From an uncultured Chromatium sp. (GTDB lineage Bacteria > Pseudomonadota > Gammaproteobacteria > Chromatiales > Chromatiaceae), in the NCBI GenBank assembly GCA_903897335.1, contig CAIUAY010000189.1, positions 1 through 32,568 of the forward strand: a stretch of DNA of 32,568 nt. Direction: 5' to 3'. The notes beneath the pieces are model-generated. The model worked only from the letters and a program-made list of their open reading frames with translations, searched no databases and was not told the DNA's origin. This document shows positions 1 through 7,595 of this stretch, in pieces (the stretch's first letter is position 1; each line of letters starts with the position of its first letter). The position numbers were made by a program, and so were the translations under genes.

Positions 1-75
1 CATTGCGACATCCTCGAAACCGGCAACGACTCTTACCGGTTCAAGCAACGCAAAAAGGCCAATCAGACCCTCTGA
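1..75 (+). CDS. istB: IstB-like ATPase of IS21 element, C-terminal fragment
   Basis: This is a 24-residue fragment in frame 1 ending at TGA 73-75. It contains the peptide ILETGNDSYRFK, which is characteristic of the extreme C-terminus of IstB-type transposition helper ATPases. IstB proteins bind DNA and ATP and guide the IstA transposase to its target in IS21-family elements. The AAA+ core with its Walker motifs is off the left edge. The tail after SYRFK (QRKKANQTL) is short and basic, as is usual in the family. The fragment is too short to say whether the complete gene is intact. Confidence 0.75.
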   Translation, partial: HCDILETGNDSYRFKQRKKANQTL

Positions 76-139
76 GTCGCTCGTTCAACTGGAAAAAATT
101 CGATGTTGATGCCTGGTAACTTTTGGATGGTGATTGACA
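1..139 (+). mobile_element. IS21-family insertion sequence, right end only
   Basis: The stretch holds the last codons of an IstB-like helper gene, about 60 bases of non-coding DNA, and a terminus reading TTTTGGATGGTGATTGACA at 121-139. Read from outside inward it starts TGTCAATCACC, which fits the TG...CA ends known for IS21-family elements. Immediately after base 139 the sequence becomes a histidine-kinase reading frame with no start of its own, so the junction is an insertion boundary. The other end, the target duplication and istA lie outside the window. The family call rests on the IstB peptide and the terminal bases; the exact boundary could shift by one or two bases. Confidence 0.75.
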
Positions 140-2204
140 GGCGGCTCGCTCACTGCTCGACATCCTCAACGACATCCTTGATTTTTCCAAGGTCGAGGCT
201 GGGCGGCTGGAGCTTGATTGCGCCCCGTTCCAGCTCGAACAGGTGATCGGCGAAGCGCTGCTACTCGTGCAGCAACGCGCTCAGGAAAAGGAGATCGAGC
301 TGCTGTTCGATGCCAGTGGGCTGTGGGCAATCCGTCAGGGCGGTGAATTACAGGGCGATGCGCTACGTTTGCGTCAGGTGCTGGTCAACCTGCTGTCAAA
401 CGCGGTGAAGTTCACGCACGTTGGTCATGTGCGGCTGCTCCTGGAACAGGTTGACGACAGCAATGAGGAGGTGGCAGTGCATTTTGCCATCGAAGACAGC
501 GGCATCGGCATGACAGCGGCGCAGATGCATGGGCTATTTGAGGAATTTACCCAGGCGGATAACTCCACCACCCGCAGATATGGCGGCACTGGGCTGGGTC
601 TGGCCATTTCCAAGCGCCTGGTGGAGATCATGGGTGGTCAGCTTCAGGTCAGAAGTCAGCCAGAACAGGGCGCGACGTTTGACTTCACGCTGCACTTTGC
701 ACGAACCCGCGCTCACTCCAAACCGGCATTGCCGGAAGCAGACGCCACGTTTGCGACTCTGCGCATCCTGATCGTGGATGACTATCCAGAAGCTCGCGCC
801 GCACTCTTGAATCTGCTGCGGCATCTGGCCATCACCCGCGTGGATGACTGCGCCAACGGTCATGCGGCCATTGACCGCCTACAGTCCGCCTGGTCAGCCG
901 GTGATCCCTACGATCTGCTGATTTTGGACTGGATCATGCCTGAAATGGATGGCGCGGCTGTTTTGCGAACGCTGCGCGAGCGCGGGATTCCCGCTCCGCG
1001 TCACATCCTCGTCGTCTCGGCCTATGCGCCCGGCGAGATCCGTGACCAGGCGCAATCACTCGGTGTGCAGGATTGCATCACCAAGCCGGTGATGCTCCAG
1101 GTGTTGCGCGACTATCTACGCCATGTCGCCAGCGGCGAGTCACCGCACATGACCACGCAACCCGGAACGTTGCGAGCCTCACTGCATGGATTGCGGGTGC
1201 TGCTGGTCGAGGACAACCCGGTCAACCAGCAGATCGCCACTGAATTGATGCGTGGCCACGCCGTCGAGGTCGACGTGGCAAACCATGGCGCCGAGGCATT
1301 GGAGCGACTGGCGGCAGTCCCGCCGGAGCACTATGCGTTGGTGCTGATGGATTTGCAGATGCCAGTGCTGGATGGCTATCAGGCGACGATCCGGTTACGC
1401 GCCAATCCACGCTATGCCAAACTGCCGGTTATCGCCATGACCGCTCATGTTCTGACCGATGAACGCCAGCGTGGACTCGCGCTAGGAATGCAGGGCTATC
1501 TGGCCAAGCCGTTCGAACCGTCCGAGCTGTTCGCCATCCTGTCACGCTATCATCAGGTTGGGGCGACCGCAGTGCCACAGCCAGCGGTGACTGGCGTCGC
1601 ACTGCCCGACATTCCGGAACTACCCGACATACCGGGACTGGACACTCGCAATGGTCTGGCGCACCTCGGCGGCAATCTGCATTTCTATTGCAAGATGCTC
1701 GCTGCCTTCGGCGACCAGTACCGCGTCGAGCGAACCGACGCCTACGCGCATCTGGAACAGGGTGACTGGGAGGCGCTCACCTACTATGCACACGCATTGA
1801 AAGGATTGGCTGGCACATTGGGCATGGCGGCCATTCAGACGGCGGCAACCGCACTGGAGCAAGCCGTCAAGACGCAGGATTCAGGCACTGCCGAGCGACT
1901 GCGCGAGCTTGATGCACGGCTGGAACCCATGCTCAGACATCTGGACGCGGCGCTCAGCTCGAGTGCGTTGGTGTCGTCTATGCCAAAAACCAATTCCGAG
2001 ACACAAACTGACCTTTTACAAAACCTGCGCCAGCTCCTGACCGAAGGCGATGCCGAAGCAATCGAACTGTGGCAGCAGTGTGCAGATGACTTCGCCAGAC
2101 TGTTGCCAGGCGTCGTCCTGCTGCGGCTGCGCCGCGCTCTCGACAGCTTCGATTTTGACACCGCGCTGGCGCTACTTGACGCGCATCCTGAAAACGATCA
2201 GTAA
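140..2204 (+). pseudogene. Hybrid histidine kinase, 5' end removed by IS21 insertion
   Basis: The reading frame is open from the IS junction and begins inside the second dimerisation helix (ARSLLDILNDILDFSKVEAG, about 144-203). The phosphorylated histidine box and all sensor domains are missing. What remains, numbered from a GTG at 243, is a HATPase_c domain (N box about 42-58, DSGIGM 85-90, GGTGLGL 114-120), a first receiver domain about 174-295 (acceptor D229, K281), a second receiver about 317-435 (D370, K422) and an HPt domain with H517. The family passes phosphate from a kinase histidine through receivers to HPt and then to a response regulator. The gene stops 18 bases before the HD-GYP regulator, its likely partner. 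A product started at GTG 243 could not autophosphorylate, although the receiver/HPt part might still relay phosphate. Domain calls are firm; loss of kinase function is inferred from the missing H box. Confidence 0.85.
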
Positions 2205-2222: not shown

Positions 2223-3404
2223 ATGGACGGCAGTTCTGTTGACGTTAAAACGCACCTGAACCATGATCAGCCATCGACATGTTTCACGGATGCGAATGCA
2301 CTCATGGCGCTGCAACAACTGGAACGCCCCACGATCCTGGTGGTCGATGACACGCCGGCCAATCTGAGCCTGCTGGGTCAGATGCTCAAGGATGACTACC
2401 GGGTCAAGCTGGCTAACCATGGTCAACGGGCACTCGATCTGGCTGCGGCCACGCCGCCGGATCTCATCCTCTGCGATGTGATGATGCCGGGAATGAATGG
2501 CTTTGAGGTCTGCCAGCGTCTCAAGCGCAATCCGGCGACGACCCGGATACCGGTGATCTTTGTCACGGCGGCGCTGGATGTCGAGGAAGAAAAGCACGGT
2601 TTCGAGGTCGGTGCAGTCGATTACATTCATAAACCCGTCACGCCGCTGATCGTGCTGGCGCGGGTTCGGGCGCATCTCCAGATCAAACGCTGGCAGGATT
2701 TCATGGAAGATCAGAGCGCCTGGCTCCAGCAGGAAGTGGCGCGTCAGGTTCAGCAGGTCGTCCAGCTTCAGTCCGCGACGATTCATGTGATGGTGTCGCT
2801 GGCCGAATTCCGCGACGAGGAGACCGGCAACCACATCCGCCGTACCCAGGAATATGTCCGGCTGCTGGGCGACTGGATGTTGCGCCATGGGTTTTATCCG
2901 CTGGTGCTGACCTCCGCGACCGTCGATCAGATCGCTCAAGCGGCTCCGCTGCACGACATCGGCAAGATTGCCATTCCCGATCACATCCTGCTCAAGCCGG
3001 CGCAGTTGAACTCGGAAGAATTCGAGGTCATGAAGACGCACGCCATGCAGGGCTTCGAGATTCTGGAGCAGGCACGTCATTCGATGGGCGAGGACAATCC
3101 ACTGCTGTTTTACGCCTCGCAGATCACCCGTCACCACCATGAACGCTGGGATGGCAGTGGCTACCCGGACGGACTCAGCGGCGCGGCGATCCCGCTGGCC
3201 GCGCGCCTGATGGCTGTCGCCGATGTCTATGACGCGATCCGTTCGTCACGTCCCTACAAACGTCCCTTCACGCATGCTGCAACCATCGCGCTGATCGAAG
3301 AGGGGCGGGGACGTCATTTTGATCCAGACGTGCTCGATGCCTTTTTCGACTTGCATGAGACATTTGCCAGCATTGCCGAGCAACTGGCGGACACTGAAAG
3401 ATGA
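2223..3404 (+). CDS. Response regulator with HD-GYP c-di-GMP phosphodiesterase domain
   Basis: This 393-residue protein has an N-terminal receiver domain (about 36-152; acidic VDD 41-43, acceptor D85 in LCDVMMPGMNG, K137) and a C-terminal HD-GYP domain (about 185-385; H204, HDIGK 244-248, HHHERWDGSGYP 304-315). The metal-binding HD pair and the GYP motif are intact. HD-GYP proteins of the RpfG type hydrolyse cyclic di-GMP when switched by phosphorylation of the receiver. The likely phosphodonor is the upstream hybrid kinase, which is broken here. The start at 2223 has only a weak ribosome site; an ATG at 2304, just before the receiver, is the alternative. The stop overlaps the next gene by 4 bases (ATGA at 3401-3404), coupling the regulator to an outer-membrane protein gene. 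Confidence 0.92.
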   Translation: MDGSSVDVKTHLNHDQPSTCFTDANALMALQQLERPTILVVDDTPANLSLLGQMLKDDYRVKLANHGQRALDLAAATPPDLILCDVMMPGMNGFEVCQRLKRNPATTRIPVIFVTAALDVEEEKHGFEVGAVDYIHKPVTPLIVLARVRAHLQIKRWQDFMEDQSAWLQQEVARQVQQVVQLQSATIHVMVSLAEFRDEETGNHIRRTQEYVRLLGDWMLRHGFYPLVLTSATVDQIAQAAPLHDIGKIAIPDHILLKPAQLNSEEFEVMKTHAMQGFEILEQARHSMGEDNPLLFYASQITRHHHERWDGSGYPDGLSGAAIPLAARLMAVADVYDAIRSSRPYKRPFTHAATIALIEEGRGRHFDPDVLDAFFDLHETFASIAEQLADTER

Positions 3405-4705
3405 CACGTTTGCCAGCAGCTCCGGTCTGGCTTTCCGGTGTCATGGCGCTGCTCATGACGCTTCCGCAACTAACCCGCGCCGAGATTCAGTTCTCAGGAT
3501 TCGGAACGCTGGGTGGCGCGATCTCCGATCAGGATGTCATCTATCAGCGGTATCTCGATGACGGCGGCACCCTGAACCGCGACTCGCTGATTGGTCTCCA
3601 GATGGACGCACGGCTGACGGATGCCTGGAGTCTGACGCTTCAGGCCAAGGCGGCACCCTCGATCCGTGATGAGAATGCCTGGGAACCGACCCTGAGCTGG
3701 GCGTTTCTTTCCTGGCGACCGGATAACGACCTGCTGCTACGCGCCGGAAAACTGCGCCTGCCGCTGATGCTCTATTCGGCCAACAGCGATGTGGGAACCA
3801 CCTTTGAGTTTGCCAGACTGCCGACCGAGCTGTATTCGCTGCTGCCGACCACGGATCTCACGGGGCTGTCATGTGCCAAGACCTGGCTCGACGGCGAGCG
3901 TGAATGGACGCTGGAAGGCTATCTGGGTCGAACACAGACTGAATGGCGTTATTATCTGCGCGACAACATGGAACCGCTGTTCCCAGCAGGCGCGTCCTTC
4001 CTCGGATACGAGCTGGACATGGCTGGACTGGTGCTATCACTGCGCGAGCACGAGAACACCTGGCGCATCGGCCTGCACCGAACCGATGCTGAATCAGATA
4101 TCGGCCCGGTGCCAAGCGGTTTTCCATTTGTCACGCTCGTGCCCGGAACCGGCATTGGTTACTACCAGGTGTCGAACGACATGCCAGGTCCTGGCGTTCC
4201 AACCGTCGATCAATACGTTATTTATGTGTTGACGCTGGGTGCCGAGATCGCGCTACCCAATGATTTCCGTCTGGTCGGCGAATTTGGTCAACGTCGGTTC
4301 AATAATGCCGCGATTGCAGGCCCCAATACCAATGCAGGCTATCTGGCGCTGCTCAAATCCATCGGACGCTGGACGCCTTACATCTACTGGGCGGGTATCC
4401 GTTCGCGTGAGCAGGCGCTGGATCTGACCGATGCACTCAACCGCAACCGCGTACCCGAATTCATCCCCGGTGCCGACGCGATCAATGCCACCCAACGTGC
4501 GGGAGCAGATATGCTCGGTCCATACGACCAGCAATCCTTGGCGATTGGCACCGCCTACAGTCTCTCGCCCACCAGTAAATTCAAGGCCGAATGGCTGCAC
4601 ACCCGCACCGGCATTCTGTCCAGCTTTGTGAATGCGCCCGCCAACGAAGATAGCGGGGGACGTCAGTTCAATGTGTTTTCGCTCTCCTACAGCGTGGCGT
4701 TTTAA
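3401..4705 (+). CDS. Porin-like outer-membrane beta-barrel protein, copy 1
   Basis: The protein has 434 residues. A signal peptide (about 1-27, ending TRA before EIQFSG) precedes a sequence rich in alternating aromatic and polar strands, and the chain ends in phenylalanine (SLSYSVAF), the usual BAM recognition signature of outer-membrane barrels. No catalytic motif is visible. It is roughly two-thirds identical by eye to the protein at 5116-6399, so the two arose by duplication. It overlaps the HD-GYP regulator by 4 bases and abuts the PstS-like gene (stop 4703-4705, next ATG 4706), so it is probably co-transcribed with both. A likely role is uptake or sensing of a small solute across the outer membrane, but the substrate cannot be read from the sequence. 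One difference from copy 2 is a cysteine in TGLSCAKTW, where copy 2 has NGLSVGKTW. Confidence 0.8.
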   Translation: MTRLPAAPVWLSGVMALLMTLPQLTRAEIQFSGFGTLGGAISDQDVIYQRYLDDGGTLNRDSLIGLQMDARLTDAWSLTLQAKAAPSIRDENAWEPTLSWAFLSWRPDNDLLLRAGKLRLPLMLYSANSDVGTTFEFARLPTELYSLLPTTDLTGLSCAKTWLDGEREWTLEGYLGRTQTEWRYYLRDNMEPLFPAGASFLGYELDMAGLVLSLREHENTWRIGLHRTDAESDIGPVPSGFPFVTLVPGTGIGYYQVSNDMPGPGVPTVDQYVIYVLTLGAEIALPNDFRLVGEFGQRRFNNAAIAGPNTNAGYLALLKSIGRWTPYIYWAGIRSREQALDLTDALNRNRVPEFIPGADAINATQRAGADMLGPYDQQSLAIGTAYSLSPTSKFKAEWLHTRTGILSSFVNAPANEDSGGRQFNVFSLSYSVAF

Positions 4706-5119
4706 ATGAATGACATGCGCATCTTCTTAATGTTCCTCGTCTTCTGCGCCCTCCCCGTGCTGGCTGACCCGATGGTCATCGGACACTCCGGATTGCCGCC
4801 GCTCGACCTGACAACCCTGCAACGGATCTATACCGGCAAGGTCGTCGAGCTGAACGGCGTGCGGGTGACGCCGGTCAACCTGCCCCTCGGCAGCACCTTG
4901 CGCACACGCTTCCTGAACGACTATCTGGGACAGAACGAGGATAAATACACTGGCTACTGGACGGTGCGTCGCTACGTCGGCAAGGGGACGCCTCCACGCG
5001 AACTAAATAGTCCAGAAGAAGTTGCACGTTTCATTGCGAACACGGTCGGAGCTATCGGCTATGTCGATACTGCCGAGCTGACGCCAGATGTCCAGGTGTT
5101 AATTCAGCAAGCGCCATGA
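4706..5119 (+). CDS. Short PstS-like periplasmic solute-binding protein
   Basis: The 137-residue product has a signal peptide (about 1-20, ending VLA before DPMVIG). The mature part resembles one lobe of phosphate-type substrate-binding proteins: LTTLQRIYTGK near the N-terminus, then RTRFLNDYLG, YWTVRRYVGKGTPP and a final VGAIGYVDT. Full PstS proteins are more than twice as long, so this is a single-lobe member of the PBP-like family. No ABC permease or ATPase gene is near, which argues against ordinary transport and for a sensing or accessory role. It abuts the first porin-like gene without a gap and overlaps the second by 4 bases (ATGA at 5116-5119). The ligand may be phosphate or another oxyanion, but this is inference from the family only. 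Confidence 0.75.
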   Translation: MNDMRIFLMFLVFCALPVLADPMVIGHSGLPPLDLTTLQRIYTGKVVELNGVRVTPVNLPLGSTLRTRFLNDYLGQNEDKYTGYWTVRRYVGKGTPPRELNSPEEVARFIANTVGAIGYVDTAELTPDVQVLIQQAP

Positions 5120-6399
5120 ACAGATACAGACGTTATCATTGGCCGATCACACTGTTCCTGGCGCTCCCACTTGTCGTTCACGCCGAGATGCAGTTCTCTG
5201 GTTTCGGGACGCTGGGTGGAGCCATCTCTGATCAAGATGTCATCTATCAGCGTGACATCGACGATAGCGGCACACTCAACCGTGATTCGCTAATCGGTGT
5301 CCAGTTAGATGCCTCGCTCACCAATACTTGGAGCCTGACGCTCCAGGCCAAGGCGGCACCCGCGATGGATAGCGATACCGCCTGGGTTCCGACCCTCACT
5401 TGGGCCTTCCTCGCCTGGCGTCCAACGAACGATCTGCTGGTGCGCGCCGGAAAGCTGCGCTTGCCACTGATGCTCTACTCGGCTAACAGCGATGTTGGAA
5501 CCACGTTTGATTTTGCCCGCCTGCCCACCGAGGTCTATTCGGCGATACCTATCGCGGATGTCAACGGGTTGTCCGTTGGTAAGACCTGGTTCGACGGCGA
5601 GCGGGAGTGGGTACTGGAAGGCTACCTGGGCAGCGCGCATAACGACTGGCGCTTCTATCTGCGCGACGATCTGCTGCCAGATCTGCCCGCTGGGTCTCTC
5701 TATAAGGGGGCGGATCTGAACCTGGCCGGATTAGTCCTGTCACTGCGCGATGGCGAGAATACCTGGCGCGTCGGTTTGCATCGGGTCGATGCCGAAGCGG
5801 ATGATGGCCCCGTCACGTCCACTTATCCTTTCGTGACCCTCGCGCCCGGGATCGGCTACTACCAGGTGTCGTCCAAGATGCCAGGGCCAGGCGTCCCGAC
5901 CGTAGACACGCTCGTCAATGATGTGCTGACACTGGGTGCCGACATCGCACTCCCCAACGACTTCCGCCTCATCGGCGAGTATGTCCGGCGCCGGATCACC
6001 AATGCCACCATGGGGCCGGATACCAGCGCCGGCTACCTGGCGCTGCTCAAGCGTATCGGGCGCTGGACGCCCTATGTCTACTGGGCTGGCATCCGCACCC
6101 AAAAGGATGCGCTGAGTCTTTACGCGGCAATCAATAGCAACCAGATACCCGATGTCATTCCAGAAGCGGCAGCGATCAATGCCTCCCAGCGTCTGGGAGC
6201 TGATCTCCTCAGTGCCTATGACCAGTATTCAGTGGCGATTGGTACGTCTTACAGTCTCTCGCCGACCAGCAAGCTCAAAGCTGAATGGCTGCACACGCAA
6301 ACCGAAGTCGTCTCCAGCTTCGTCGATCCACCAGCGGATGAAGACAGCGGCGGACGCCAGATCAATGTTTTTTCGCTCTCATACAGCGTCACGTTCTGA
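5116..6399 (+). CDS. Porin-like outer-membrane beta-barrel protein, copy 2
   Basis: The protein has 427 residues with a signal peptide (about 1-23, ending VHA before EMQFSG) and a terminal phenylalanine (SLSYSVTF). It aligns along its whole length with the protein at 3401-4705. Near-identical blocks include GFGTLGGAISDQDVIYQR, LRLPLMLYSANSDVGTTF and the C-terminal SFV...EDSGGRQ..VFSLSYSV. The most variable stretches, around residues 165-185 and 320-345, are probably extracellular loops. It starts inside the stop region of the PstS-like gene (4-base overlap). Duplication of only the porin around the small binding protein suggests two barrels with different loop specificity serving one periplasmic partner. 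I cannot assign a substrate. Confidence 0.8.
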   Translation: MNRYRRYHWPITLFLALPLVVHAEMQFSGFGTLGGAISDQDVIYQRDIDDSGTLNRDSLIGVQLDASLTNTWSLTLQAKAAPAMDSDTAWVPTLTWAFLAWRPTNDLLVRAGKLRLPLMLYSANSDVGTTFDFARLPTEVYSAIPIADVNGLSVGKTWFDGEREWVLEGYLGSAHNDWRFYLRDDLLPDLPAGSLYKGADLNLAGLVLSLRDGENTWRVGLHRVDAEADDGPVTSTYPFVTLAPGIGYYQVSSKMPGPGVPTVDTLVNDVLTLGADIALPNDFRLIGEYVRRRITNATMGPDTSAGYLALLKRIGRWTPYVYWAGIRTQKDALSLYAAINSNQIPDVIPEAAAINASQRLGADLLSAYDQYSVAIGTSYSLSPTSKLKAEWLHTQTEVVSSFVDPPADEDSGGRQINVFSLSYSVTF

Positions 6400-6563: not shown

Positions 6564-7595
6564 ATGGAGTTCACTCTTCACGTCGTCAACCGTAAAGCGC
6601 AGACCCCTGAACGGGATGTTTGCCTGAGCCTGCCTAAGAACAGCATTGCCATTGGGCGCAACCCGGCCTGTGATCTTTGTCTCGATGATTCTGAACGCAT
6701 GGTCTCTGGTCAGCATGCTCGTCTCGATGTCCGCGACGGCGGTCTGTGGGTGACAGATATCAGCCGCAACGGCACCTATCTGAACTATGCCCAGGAGCCA
6801 TTGCCCTCGCATCAGGCCGTTGCCATCCGGGATGGCGACTGTTTGATAATCGGTTTTTTTGAAGTGACAGTGAACATTGATGCCCAGGCCACGCCAGCGA
6901 CCTCACGCGAGCGTCCAAGACTGACTGAATCGCTTTCCAATCCATCGGACACGGCTGCCGTGACGGTTTCACCAACATCGCGTCAGGACACGCTAACCGC
7001 TGGCAGCGAATTAAGCGCTTTTCTGAGCGGTCTGGGGATCGGCAATCCGGCAGCCATCGAACAGCCTGATGCATTGCTGCGACATGCCGGCGAACTGCTA
7101 CGCGCACTCGCGGCAGGTCTGACGCAAACGATGATGGGTCGCGCCCAGCTTAAGAATGAACTGCGCCTTGGCGTGACTACCATTCGTGCCTCAGACAACA
7201 ACCCGTTCAAGTTTGCAGTAGATACCGACAATCTGCTGGAGTATCTCCTGCTGCGTCCAACTCCTGGATTCCTGTCAGCCGTCACCGCCGCACGGGAGGC
7301 ATACGATGACATCCAGGCACATGAAATGGCGATGATGGCTGGGTTGCAAGCCGCACTGCGGGCGCTCTTTGCCCGTTTCGAGCCATCTGAACTTGAACGT
7401 CGGCTCAGTCGCGGCGGTCTTGACCAGGTCTTGCCGACAGTACGCAAGGCCAGATACTGGGATCTCTTCACCGAAACCTATGAACAGGTTGCCGCCGAGT
7501 CATCTGAAGACGTCATGCAGGTGTTCAGTGACGCCTTCGCACACGCCTATCAGGATCACATCCAGCGTCTTGCCGAGGCGCGTCGTCGCGCCTAA
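6564..7595 (+). CDS. tagH: T6SS-associated FHA domain protein (TagH/Fha type)
   Basis: The protein has 343 residues. An N-terminal FHA phosphothreonine-binding domain spans about 25-100, with GR at 31-32, SGQH at 48-51 and NGT at 69-71, the residues that contact the phosphopeptide. A linker of about 60 residues follows, then a C-terminal domain from about 165 with LLRALAAGLTQTMMGRAQLKNE and NNPFKF, typical of the C-terminal domain of type VI secretion FHA proteins. TagH/Fha proteins tie T6SS assembly to Ser/Thr phosphorylation by PpkA. No other T6SS gene is in the window, so it is an orphan here. The start is supported by AAGGAG 7 bases upstream. The family call is good; participation in a T6SS is unproven. 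Confidence 0.8.
   Translation: MEFTLHVVNRKAQTPERDVCLSLPKNSIAIGRNPACDLCLDDSERMVSGQHARLDVRDGGLWVTDISRNGTYLNYAQEPLPSHQAVAIRDGDCLIIGFFEVTVNIDAQATPATSRERPRLTESLSNPSDTAAVTVSPTSRQDTLTAGSELSAFLSGLGIGNPAAIEQPDALLRHAGELLRALAAGLTQTMMGRAQLKNELRLGVTTIRASDNNPFKFAVDTDNLLEYLLLRPTPGFLSAVTAAREAYDDIQAHEMAMMAGLQAALRALFARFEPSELERRLSRGGLDQVLPTVRKARYWDLFTETYEQVAAESSEDVMQVFSDAFAHAYQDHIQRLAEARRRA

What the first reader, a model, noticed from the sequence alone, without database searches (positions are those of the whole stretch)
2223..6399. Porin / PstS-like / porin cassette fused in one operon with an HD-GYP regulator
Four genes overlap or abut (ATGA, zero gap, ATGA): an HD-GYP c-di-GMP phosphodiesterase, a barrel protein, a single-lobe PstS-like periplasmic protein and a second barrel. 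No ABC permease or ATPase is present, so the solute-binding protein is unlikely to serve transport by itself. The arrangement suggests an envelope sensing pathway in which a barrel admits or presents a ligand, the small binding protein captures it, and the hybrid kinase and HD-GYP protein turn it into a c-di-GMP change. I do not know a described system with this exact layout.
Basis: partly seen in the sequence, partly recalled or inferred. Interest (0 to 1): 0.65.

Follow-up and report, generated by a model that had tools for sequence, protein, structure and literature searches.

The report
Porin plus half-PstS sensory input module
A small secreted protein shaped like one half of a phosphate-binding protein is almost always encoded next to one particular outer-membrane barrel, and the pair sits beside many kinds of bacterial signalling proteins, so it looks like an undescribed, exchangeable sensor for the cell surface.

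Summary
Window 2223-6399 holds a REC-HD-GYP regulator, a barrel, a 137-aa PstS-like protein and a second barrel (70% identical to the first), overlapping or abutting. The short protein models (pLDDT 94.5) as the second lobe of PstS alone; the SG[S/T] phosphate loop is absent in 0-of-43 terms (none of 43 relatives keeps it). The barrel models (pLDDT 93) as a porin of about 16 strands.

Of 398 phylum genomes, 63 have both genes, 1 only the lobe, 2 only the barrel, 332 neither; 114 of 123 lobe genes have the barrel within 1.5 kb, all same-strand. Of 60 regions (one per genome), 53 have a signalling gene within two genes (background 7 of 137 distant genes); Pfam adds two. Partners are hybrid kinases, HD-GYP, GGDEF/EAL, chemoreceptors and SpoIIE phosphatases; on a barrel tree partner class changes at least 18 times. 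The pair is therefore best read as a swappable sensory input, not a c-di-GMP-specific cassette.

In this genome the kinase gene is split by an insertion element. Ligand, contacts and direction of signalling are untested. Nine searches of an open-access library (listings capped) showed no description.

The parts
1..139 (.). end of a multi-copy insertion element that interrupts the kinase gene
   Evidence: found at 100% identity (113-140 bases) at 23 places in the own genome, the window included; inverted end and a short repeat of the target on the other contig, read by eye. IstB-like tail is recalled, not tested.
140..2204 (+). C-terminal part of a hybrid histidine kinase (HATPase, REC, REC, Hpt); N-terminal 372 residues lie on contig C116
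   Evidence: Pfam; split homology 1-372 / 370-1046 to an intact same-genus kinase. The ORF start at 243 is only the first start codon.
2223..3404 (+). REC-HD-GYP response regulator (predicted c-di-GMP phosphodiesterase)
   Evidence: Pfam Response_reg 1.4e-27, HD_5 4.9e-32; motifs
3401..4705 (+). porin-like barrel 1, signal-like N-terminus, ends in F
   Evidence: family member by iterated profile
4706..5119 (+). secreted single PstS lobe (lobe 2), 137 aa with signal-like N-terminus
   Evidence: profile hit to PstS, model pLDDT 94.5, Foldseek E 5.6e-7, VIA Z 14.5
5116..6399 (+). porin-like barrel 2, paralogue of barrel 1 (70%)
   Evidence: model pLDDT 93.0; Foldseek porins, best E 2.2e-13

Best explanation
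The barrel and the single PstS lobe form a two-protein sensory input module of the envelope. The barrel (a porin-fold protein of about 16 strands) admits or presents a specific solute at the outer membrane. The secreted lobe acts in the periplasm as the adaptor that reports this to the periplasmic domain of whatever inner-membrane transducer is encoded beside it. In the window the transducer is a hybrid kinase feeding a REC-HD-GYP phosphodiesterase, so the output would be a change in c-di-GMP; elsewhere it is a diguanylate cyclase/phosphodiesterase, a chemoreceptor or a SpoIIE phosphatase. SHOWN: gene layout, near-obligate pairing, signalling neighbourhood, folds by model, loss of the SG[S/T] loop, repeated change of partner class. 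INFERRED: export and location, physical contact, direction of signalling, ligand.
For: Pairing: 63 genomes with both, 1 lobe only, 2 barrel only, 332 neither; 114 of 123 lobe places with the barrel within 1.5 kb, 114 of 114 same strand. Neighbours: signalling gene within two genes in 53 of 60 regions, adjacent in 51, background 7 of 137 genes, P about 4e-31, or 6e-18 with the background doubled to 10%, taking regions as independent; two more by Pfam (L135 kinase, L145 SpoIIE). Order sets: 37 of 40 (chosen mostly by barrel) and 17 of 20 (chosen by lobe). Named genomes: chemoreceptor near 70 of 78 loci. 45 of 48 adjacent transducers show an N-terminal TM, periplasmic-size stretch, TM pattern (no control set). 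Folds. Partner swapping: at least 18 changes over 118 labelled rows, shuffles 57.
Against: No ligand, no contact and no phenotype is known. Five of 60 regions have no signalling gene within two genes even after the Pfam check (L123, L144, L154, L170, L174; for L123 and L144 only the lobe frame of L123 was scanned). Nine of 123 lobe places had no barrel hit: of five of these that I fetched, L144 has a barrel (missed through the search's candidate limit), L123, L125, L148 and L180 do not. Sensor regions of the transducers differ (dCache_1, dCache_3, HAMP with unnamed regions), so no single docking surface is evident. L097's neighbour is REC-DUF3369-GGDEF-EAL with no periplasmic sensor domain in Pfam. 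Neighbour labels rest on home-made profiles, checked by Pfam on 29 proteins. In this genome the kinase gene is broken.
Confidence: 0.75

Rival explanations
1. Nutrient uptake: the porin admits a solute and the lobe is a degenerate scavenging protein; the signalling genes regulate the uptake genes and do not receive a signal from them.
For: Porin fold incl. OprP/OprO matches; PstS ancestry.
Against: ABC-ATPase motif in only 1 of 347 near genes (as rare far away, 1 of 231); a single lobe without the SG[S/T] loop; chemoreceptors and diguanylate cyclases are not usual local gene regulators (established knowledge).
Confidence: 0.12
2. Envelope-state sensing: the lobe is bound to the barrel and released or moved when the outer membrane or barrel is perturbed (assembly, contact, phage), like YfiB-YfiR-YfiN in logic (recalled). 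No small-molecule ligand is involved.
For: The SG[S/T] loop is kept in 0 of 43 while other lobe residues are invariant (W70, P82, Y104); the barrel is near-obligate.
Against: The barrel is porin-like, not an OmpA-like lipoprotein; barrels diverge widely (16-69% identity to barrel 2), which would fit diverse ligands.
Confidence: 0.3
3. The lobe is a plug, chaperone or assembly factor of its barrel and has no signalling role; signalling genes are neighbours because the whole block is exchanged as a unit.
For: Lobe and barrel pair more tightly than either pairs with any one transducer class.
Against: Signalling genes adjacent in 51 of 60 random regions; 7 of 137 distant genes are signalling genes.
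Confidence: 0.1

Closest known systems
Solute-binding protein-activated receptors: NspS-MbaA (polyamines, V. cholerae; passages seen in PMC8079147), general mechanism (passages seen in PMC9602780)
   Same: A secreted periplasmic binding protein encoded beside a transmembrane receptor of the GGDEF-EAL, kinase or chemoreceptor type
   Different: No dedicated porin appeared in the passages that I saw (in the main text of PMC9602780 'porin' occurs 0 times); the binding proteins there are two-lobed (general statement in PMC8846402 section 10); here it is one lobe with a near-obligate barrel
Chitoporin - chitin-binding protein (CBP) - ChiS (one passage of the introduction seen in PMC7564644)
   Same: Outer-membrane porin, periplasmic binding protein and sensor kinase in one sensing route
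   Different: A catabolic programme for one sugar; full-size binding protein and hybrid kinase type are recalled; not an exchangeable two-gene pair
PahS-PahP-PahK of Cycloclasticus (only table lines seen in PMC8547461)
   Same: Outer-membrane receptor, periplasmic substrate-binding protein and histidine kinase with consecutive locus numbers
   Different: 687-aa receptor and 318-aa binding protein by that table; homology to this pair not tested
PstS phosphate-binding proteins (PF12849, TIGR02136)
   Same: Fold of the second lobe (Z 14.5 to 4lat)
   Different: One lobe only, SG[S/T] loop lost, no ABC partners seen
16-stranded porins incl. OmpT, chitoporin, OprP/OprO
   Same: Barrel fold
   Different: 8-13% identity in the 50 rows shown, the window barrels are below Pfam cut-offs, tied to a periplasmic lobe and a transducer

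Membership tests
PstS / phosphate solute-binding protein | homology and fold of PstS | tested here: met
   profile E 7e-9; Foldseek E 5.6e-7; Z 14.5, 107 of 122 residues, second lobe only. The own genome's divergent PstS is not recognised by sequence (hhalign E 0.11)
PstS / phosphate solute-binding protein | two lobes closing on the ligand | tested here: not met
   122-residue domain aligns to chain 104-230 of 4lat only
PstS / phosphate solute-binding protein | SG[S/T] phosphate loop of lobe 2 | tested here: not met
   0 of 43 (columns mapped by eye from the alignment). Control: the own genome's PstS keeps SGT. The neighbouring Arg is kept in 3 of 43, but the own PstS has no Arg there either, so Arg is not telling
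PstS / phosphate solute-binding protein | ABC permease and ATPase partners | tested here: not met
   ATPase motif in 1 of 347 near genes (crude motif); permeases not scanned
Porins of 16 strands | 16-stranded barrel with C-terminal Phe | tested here: met
   model of barrel 2 (strands counted by eye), Foldseek porins, window barrels end ...YSVAF/YSVTF
Porins of 16 strands | over a curated family cut-off | tested here: not met
   window barrels: OMP_b-brl 22.2 and 15.5 bits, cut-off 28.7. Relatives: weak E-values only, OMP_b-brl 10, Porin_4 8, Porin_O_P 4 of 39, cut-offs not shown; none in NCBIfam
HD-GYP phosphodiesterase | HD and HHxxxDGxGYP motifs with REC domain | tested here: met
   activity not testable
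SBP-activated receptor system | binding-protein gene beside a transmembrane receptor gene | tested here: met
SBP-activated receptor system | direct binding of the binding protein to the receptor domain | not testable with these tools
   needs pull-down or complex structure
YfiBNR | OmpA-like outer-membrane lipoprotein partner (definition recalled) | tested here: not met
   the N-termini of both window barrels hold no Cys and the fold is porin-like; relatives not checked

The most novel reading that the evidence does not exclude
A 'half-flytrap' relay: the single PstS lobe lost its own second lobe and ligand loop because closure now happens against a partner (the barrel's periplasmic face or the receptor's periplasmic domain). 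This would give Pseudomonadota a general outer-membrane-to-inner-membrane sensing module that can be plugged into kinases, c-di-GMP enzymes, chemoreceptors and phosphatases.
Probability: 0.35. Interest if true: 0.85.

Novelty: new variant of a known kind. Interest (0 to 1): 0.68.

Why it matters
How events at the outer membrane reach inner-membrane receptors is known for few systems (established knowledge, not searched). If right, many genes that automatic annotation would file as porins or PstS-type binding proteins are sensory parts (lobe gene in 64 of 398 phylum genomes; 486 confirmed matches of one subfamily in the species collection), and the adjacent kinases, cyclases and chemoreceptors gain a testable input. 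The chemoreceptor-linked form occurs in named genera such as Marinobacter, Shewanella and Alteromonas.

Tried and rejected
A c-di-GMP-only reading was rejected: chemoreceptors, kinases without HD-GYP and SpoIIE phosphatases are also partners. Phosphate as the ligand is not supported by the residues but is not excluded. A recent local duplication of the barrel was rejected: upstream and downstream copies mostly form separate lineages across the genus (4 changes of position label, shuffles 7.8-7.9; quick tree of 30 rows, a long-branch warning was given). Comparison of the lobe with the own genome's PstS: one search took a wrong ORF, made no alignment, one search gave only a weak one (hhalign E 0.11, HMMER below inclusion); that PstS keeps SGT but not the Arg, so I no longer use the Arg. 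PHROGs gave nothing for the lobe or barrel 2. Single-sequence PDB searches gave nothing usable. No structure of a complex, and none of the kinase sensor domain, could be predicted (2 of 2 jobs used). Paper searches, open-access PMC only: nine for the pair and one for the chitin system. Three of the nine listed 0 or few papers; others (24 papers; 1,096; 271; 31) listed only 20 each, of which I saw titles and abstract starts. Passages were seen in PMC8846402 (also section 10), PMC13031359, PMC8547461, PMC9602780, PMC8079147 and PMC7564644; no paper was read whole. In the main text of PMC8846402 'PstS' and 'porin' occur 0 times.
Full report
WHAT IS THERE. The window (G000:C189, genome 3.29 Mb in 277 contigs) carries, on the + strand, a hybrid-kinase fragment to 2204, a REC-HD-GYP regulator 2223-3404, barrel 1 3401-4705, a 137-aa PstS-like protein 4706-5119 and barrel 2 5116-6399. 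The junctions are ATGA, zero gap and ATGA. Both barrels and the small protein start with hydrophobic signal-like stretches (by eye) and both barrels end in Phe. The next gene, 6564-7595, is a T6SS-associated FHA protein (TagH), separated by 164 bases; I do not count it as part.

THE KINASE IS SPLIT HERE. A same-genus kinase of 1051 aa (HAMP, HisKA, HATPase, two REC, Hpt) matches the window from residue 370 on (68%), and its residues 1-372 match contig C116 (74%), each match beginning about 140 bases from the start of its contig. Window 1-139 occurs at 100% identity (113-140 bases) at 23 places in the genome, the window included; 15 of the 23 begin at base 1 of a contig (40 of 57 candidates were scored). 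The two ends show an inverted repeat and a short repeated target (read by eye). So a multi-copy insertion element interrupts the kinase gene in this assembly. Long uninterrupted kinases exist in same-genus genomes (L063, L064, L066).

WHAT THE TWO UNKNOWN PROTEINS ARE. The small protein has no Pfam or NCBIfam hit by itself. An alignment of 43 relatives (A1) finds PstS in the PDB (4exl, E 7e-9); 9 of 43 members reach PBP_like_2 (best E 1.6e-5) and 12 of 43 TIGR02136 (best 3.8e-8). The model (pLDDT 94.5) matches PstS by Foldseek (E 5.6e-7) and VIA-align (4lat, Z 14.5, 107 residues, rmsd 1.8; chain 104-230): it is the second lobe alone. The SG[S/T] loop of that lobe is kept in 0 of 43 (columns mapped by eye), while the own genome's PstS keeps SGT. 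The Arg beside it is kept in 3 of 43, but the own PstS lacks it too. W70, P82 and Y104 are invariant. The window barrels stay below the Pfam cut-off; the barrel family (39 rows, A2) has weak porin hits only and none in NCBIfam. The model of barrel 2 (pLDDT 93.0, pTM 0.89) has about 16 long strands by my count and matches porins (OmpT E 2.2e-13, chitoporin, Omp32, OprP E 6.4e-11).

SURVEY 1, THE ORDER. A single-sequence search found the lobe in 90 of 210 genomes and the barrel in 37 of 210 (E up to 0.001; all 210 are of one family). I fetched 60 regions: 40 chosen from barrel or close lobe hits, 20 from lobe hits. A signalling gene lay within two genes in 37 of 40 and 17 of 20. Thirteen of the 20 close regions (L063-L082) carry a REC-HD-GYP gene beside the pair as in the window, counted by eye.

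SURVEY 2, THE PHYLUM. Profile searches of 398 genomes, the own one included, gave 72 with the lobe and 65 with the barrel. I dropped 14 weak lobe rows (E 1.9e-7 to 9.7e-6), none of which lies near a barrel. Of 123 remaining lobe places in 64 genomes, 114 have a barrel within 1.5 kb, all same-strand: 73 with the barrel first, 38 with the lobe first, 3 both. Genomes: both 63, lobe only 1, barrel only 2, neither 332. The tool scored at most 11 (lobe) and 4 (barrel) candidates per genome, so some absences are artefacts. Five of the nine lobe places without a barrel were among the regions fetched: L144 has a barrel after all, L123, L125, L148 and L180 do not.

NEIGHBOURS. From the 64 genomes I drew one lobe place each at random (63 without the own genome) and fetched 60. 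With profiles seeded on Pfam-checked proteins and a chemoreceptor profile seeded by a recalled motif, 53 of 60 have a signalling gene within two genes and 51 next to the pair, against 7 of 137 genes five or more away (P about 4e-31, or 6e-18 with a 10% background, if regions were independent, which related genomes are not fully). Types: GGDEF+EAL 18, kinase 14, chemoreceptor 11, GGDEF 3, HD-GYP+kinase 4, HD-GYP+kinase+chemoreceptor 1, GGDEF+kinase 1, HD-GYP 1, none 7. Pfam of neighbours in the 'none' group found a kinase (L135) and a SpoIIE phosphatase (L145), but only MatE (L154), gamma-glutamyltranspeptidase and peptidase (L170), and AMP-binding and isocitrate dehydrogenase (L174) genes; the 327-aa lobe frame of L123 had no hit; L144's neighbours were not scanned. 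ABC-ATPase-like genes: 1 of 347 near, 1 of 231 far, so they are absent, not depleted. Of 48 adjacent transducers 45 have an N-terminal TM, periplasmic-size stretch, TM pattern by hydropathy (no control set), and 42 of 48 are on the pair's strand. Pfam sensor regions differ: dCache_1, dCache_3, HAMP with unnamed regions, PAS inside.

NAMED GENOMES. One scan with a narrower lobe alignment (A3, 12 rows) confirmed 486 of 508 pattern matches; the best gave 78 loci: Gilvimarinus, Marinobacter, Alteromonas, Shewanella, Rheinheimera, Janthinobacterium, Paraburkholderia and others. A barrel is somewhere in 77 of 78, a chemoreceptor within two genes of 70, GGDEF/EAL alone of 2, nothing of 6. This subfamily was chosen by me and is biased to chemoreceptors.

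PARTNER SWAPPING. On a quick tree of 133 barrels (118 labelled, two labels set by hand) the partner class changes at least 18 times (shuffled mean 57.1). So the partner is inherited within clades but has changed repeatedly. Some labels are unsure (L071, L119), and several rows are long-branched.

MECHANISM. I conclude that lobe and barrel together are an input module for membrane transducers. Shown: layout, pairing, neighbourhood, folds by model. Inferred: contact, ligand, direction. The single lobe without its ligand loop suggests that either a partner completes the site or the lobe reports the state of the barrel; the data do not decide.

KNOWN OR NOT. Binding proteins that activate receptors are a known kind (passages of PMC9602780; NspS-MbaA, passages of PMC8079147), and porin + binding protein + ChiS is a known route (one passage of PMC7564644). 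A review of c-di-GMP sensing says that of the PBP clan only SBP_bac_3 had been studied in such networks (PMC8846402 section 10). A table in PMC8547461 lists an outer-membrane receptor, a substrate-binding protein and a kinase with consecutive numbers, which is similar in layout. None of the nine searches for the pair showed it in what they listed; four of those lists were cut at 20, and subscription papers are not covered.

Noticed in passing
window 1-139: End of a multi-copy insertion element (23 places at 100% in the genome, the window included) that splits the hybrid-kinase gene; the rest of the gene is on contig C116.
   Followed up: yes
window 6564-7595: A T6SS-type FHA protein (TagH-like) directly downstream; the genes beyond 7595 were not scanned for T6SS parts.
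   Followed up: no
G000:C73:4587-5206: Remnants of a kinase (HATPase part) and of a barrel N-terminus lie side by side: perhaps a decayed second copy of the locus.
   Followed up: no
L066 (three barrels), L073, L077, L124 and L156 (two lobes and two barrels): Tandem amplification of barrels or of whole lobe-barrel pairs in several genomes.
   Followed up: partly
L123:6380-7363: A 327-aa frame that holds a lobe domain, with no barrel called and no signalling gene within two genes; no Pfam hit.
   Followed up: no
L100, L145: The pair beside SpoIIE-type phosphatases, one with HAMP and HATPase_c_2.
   Followed up: no
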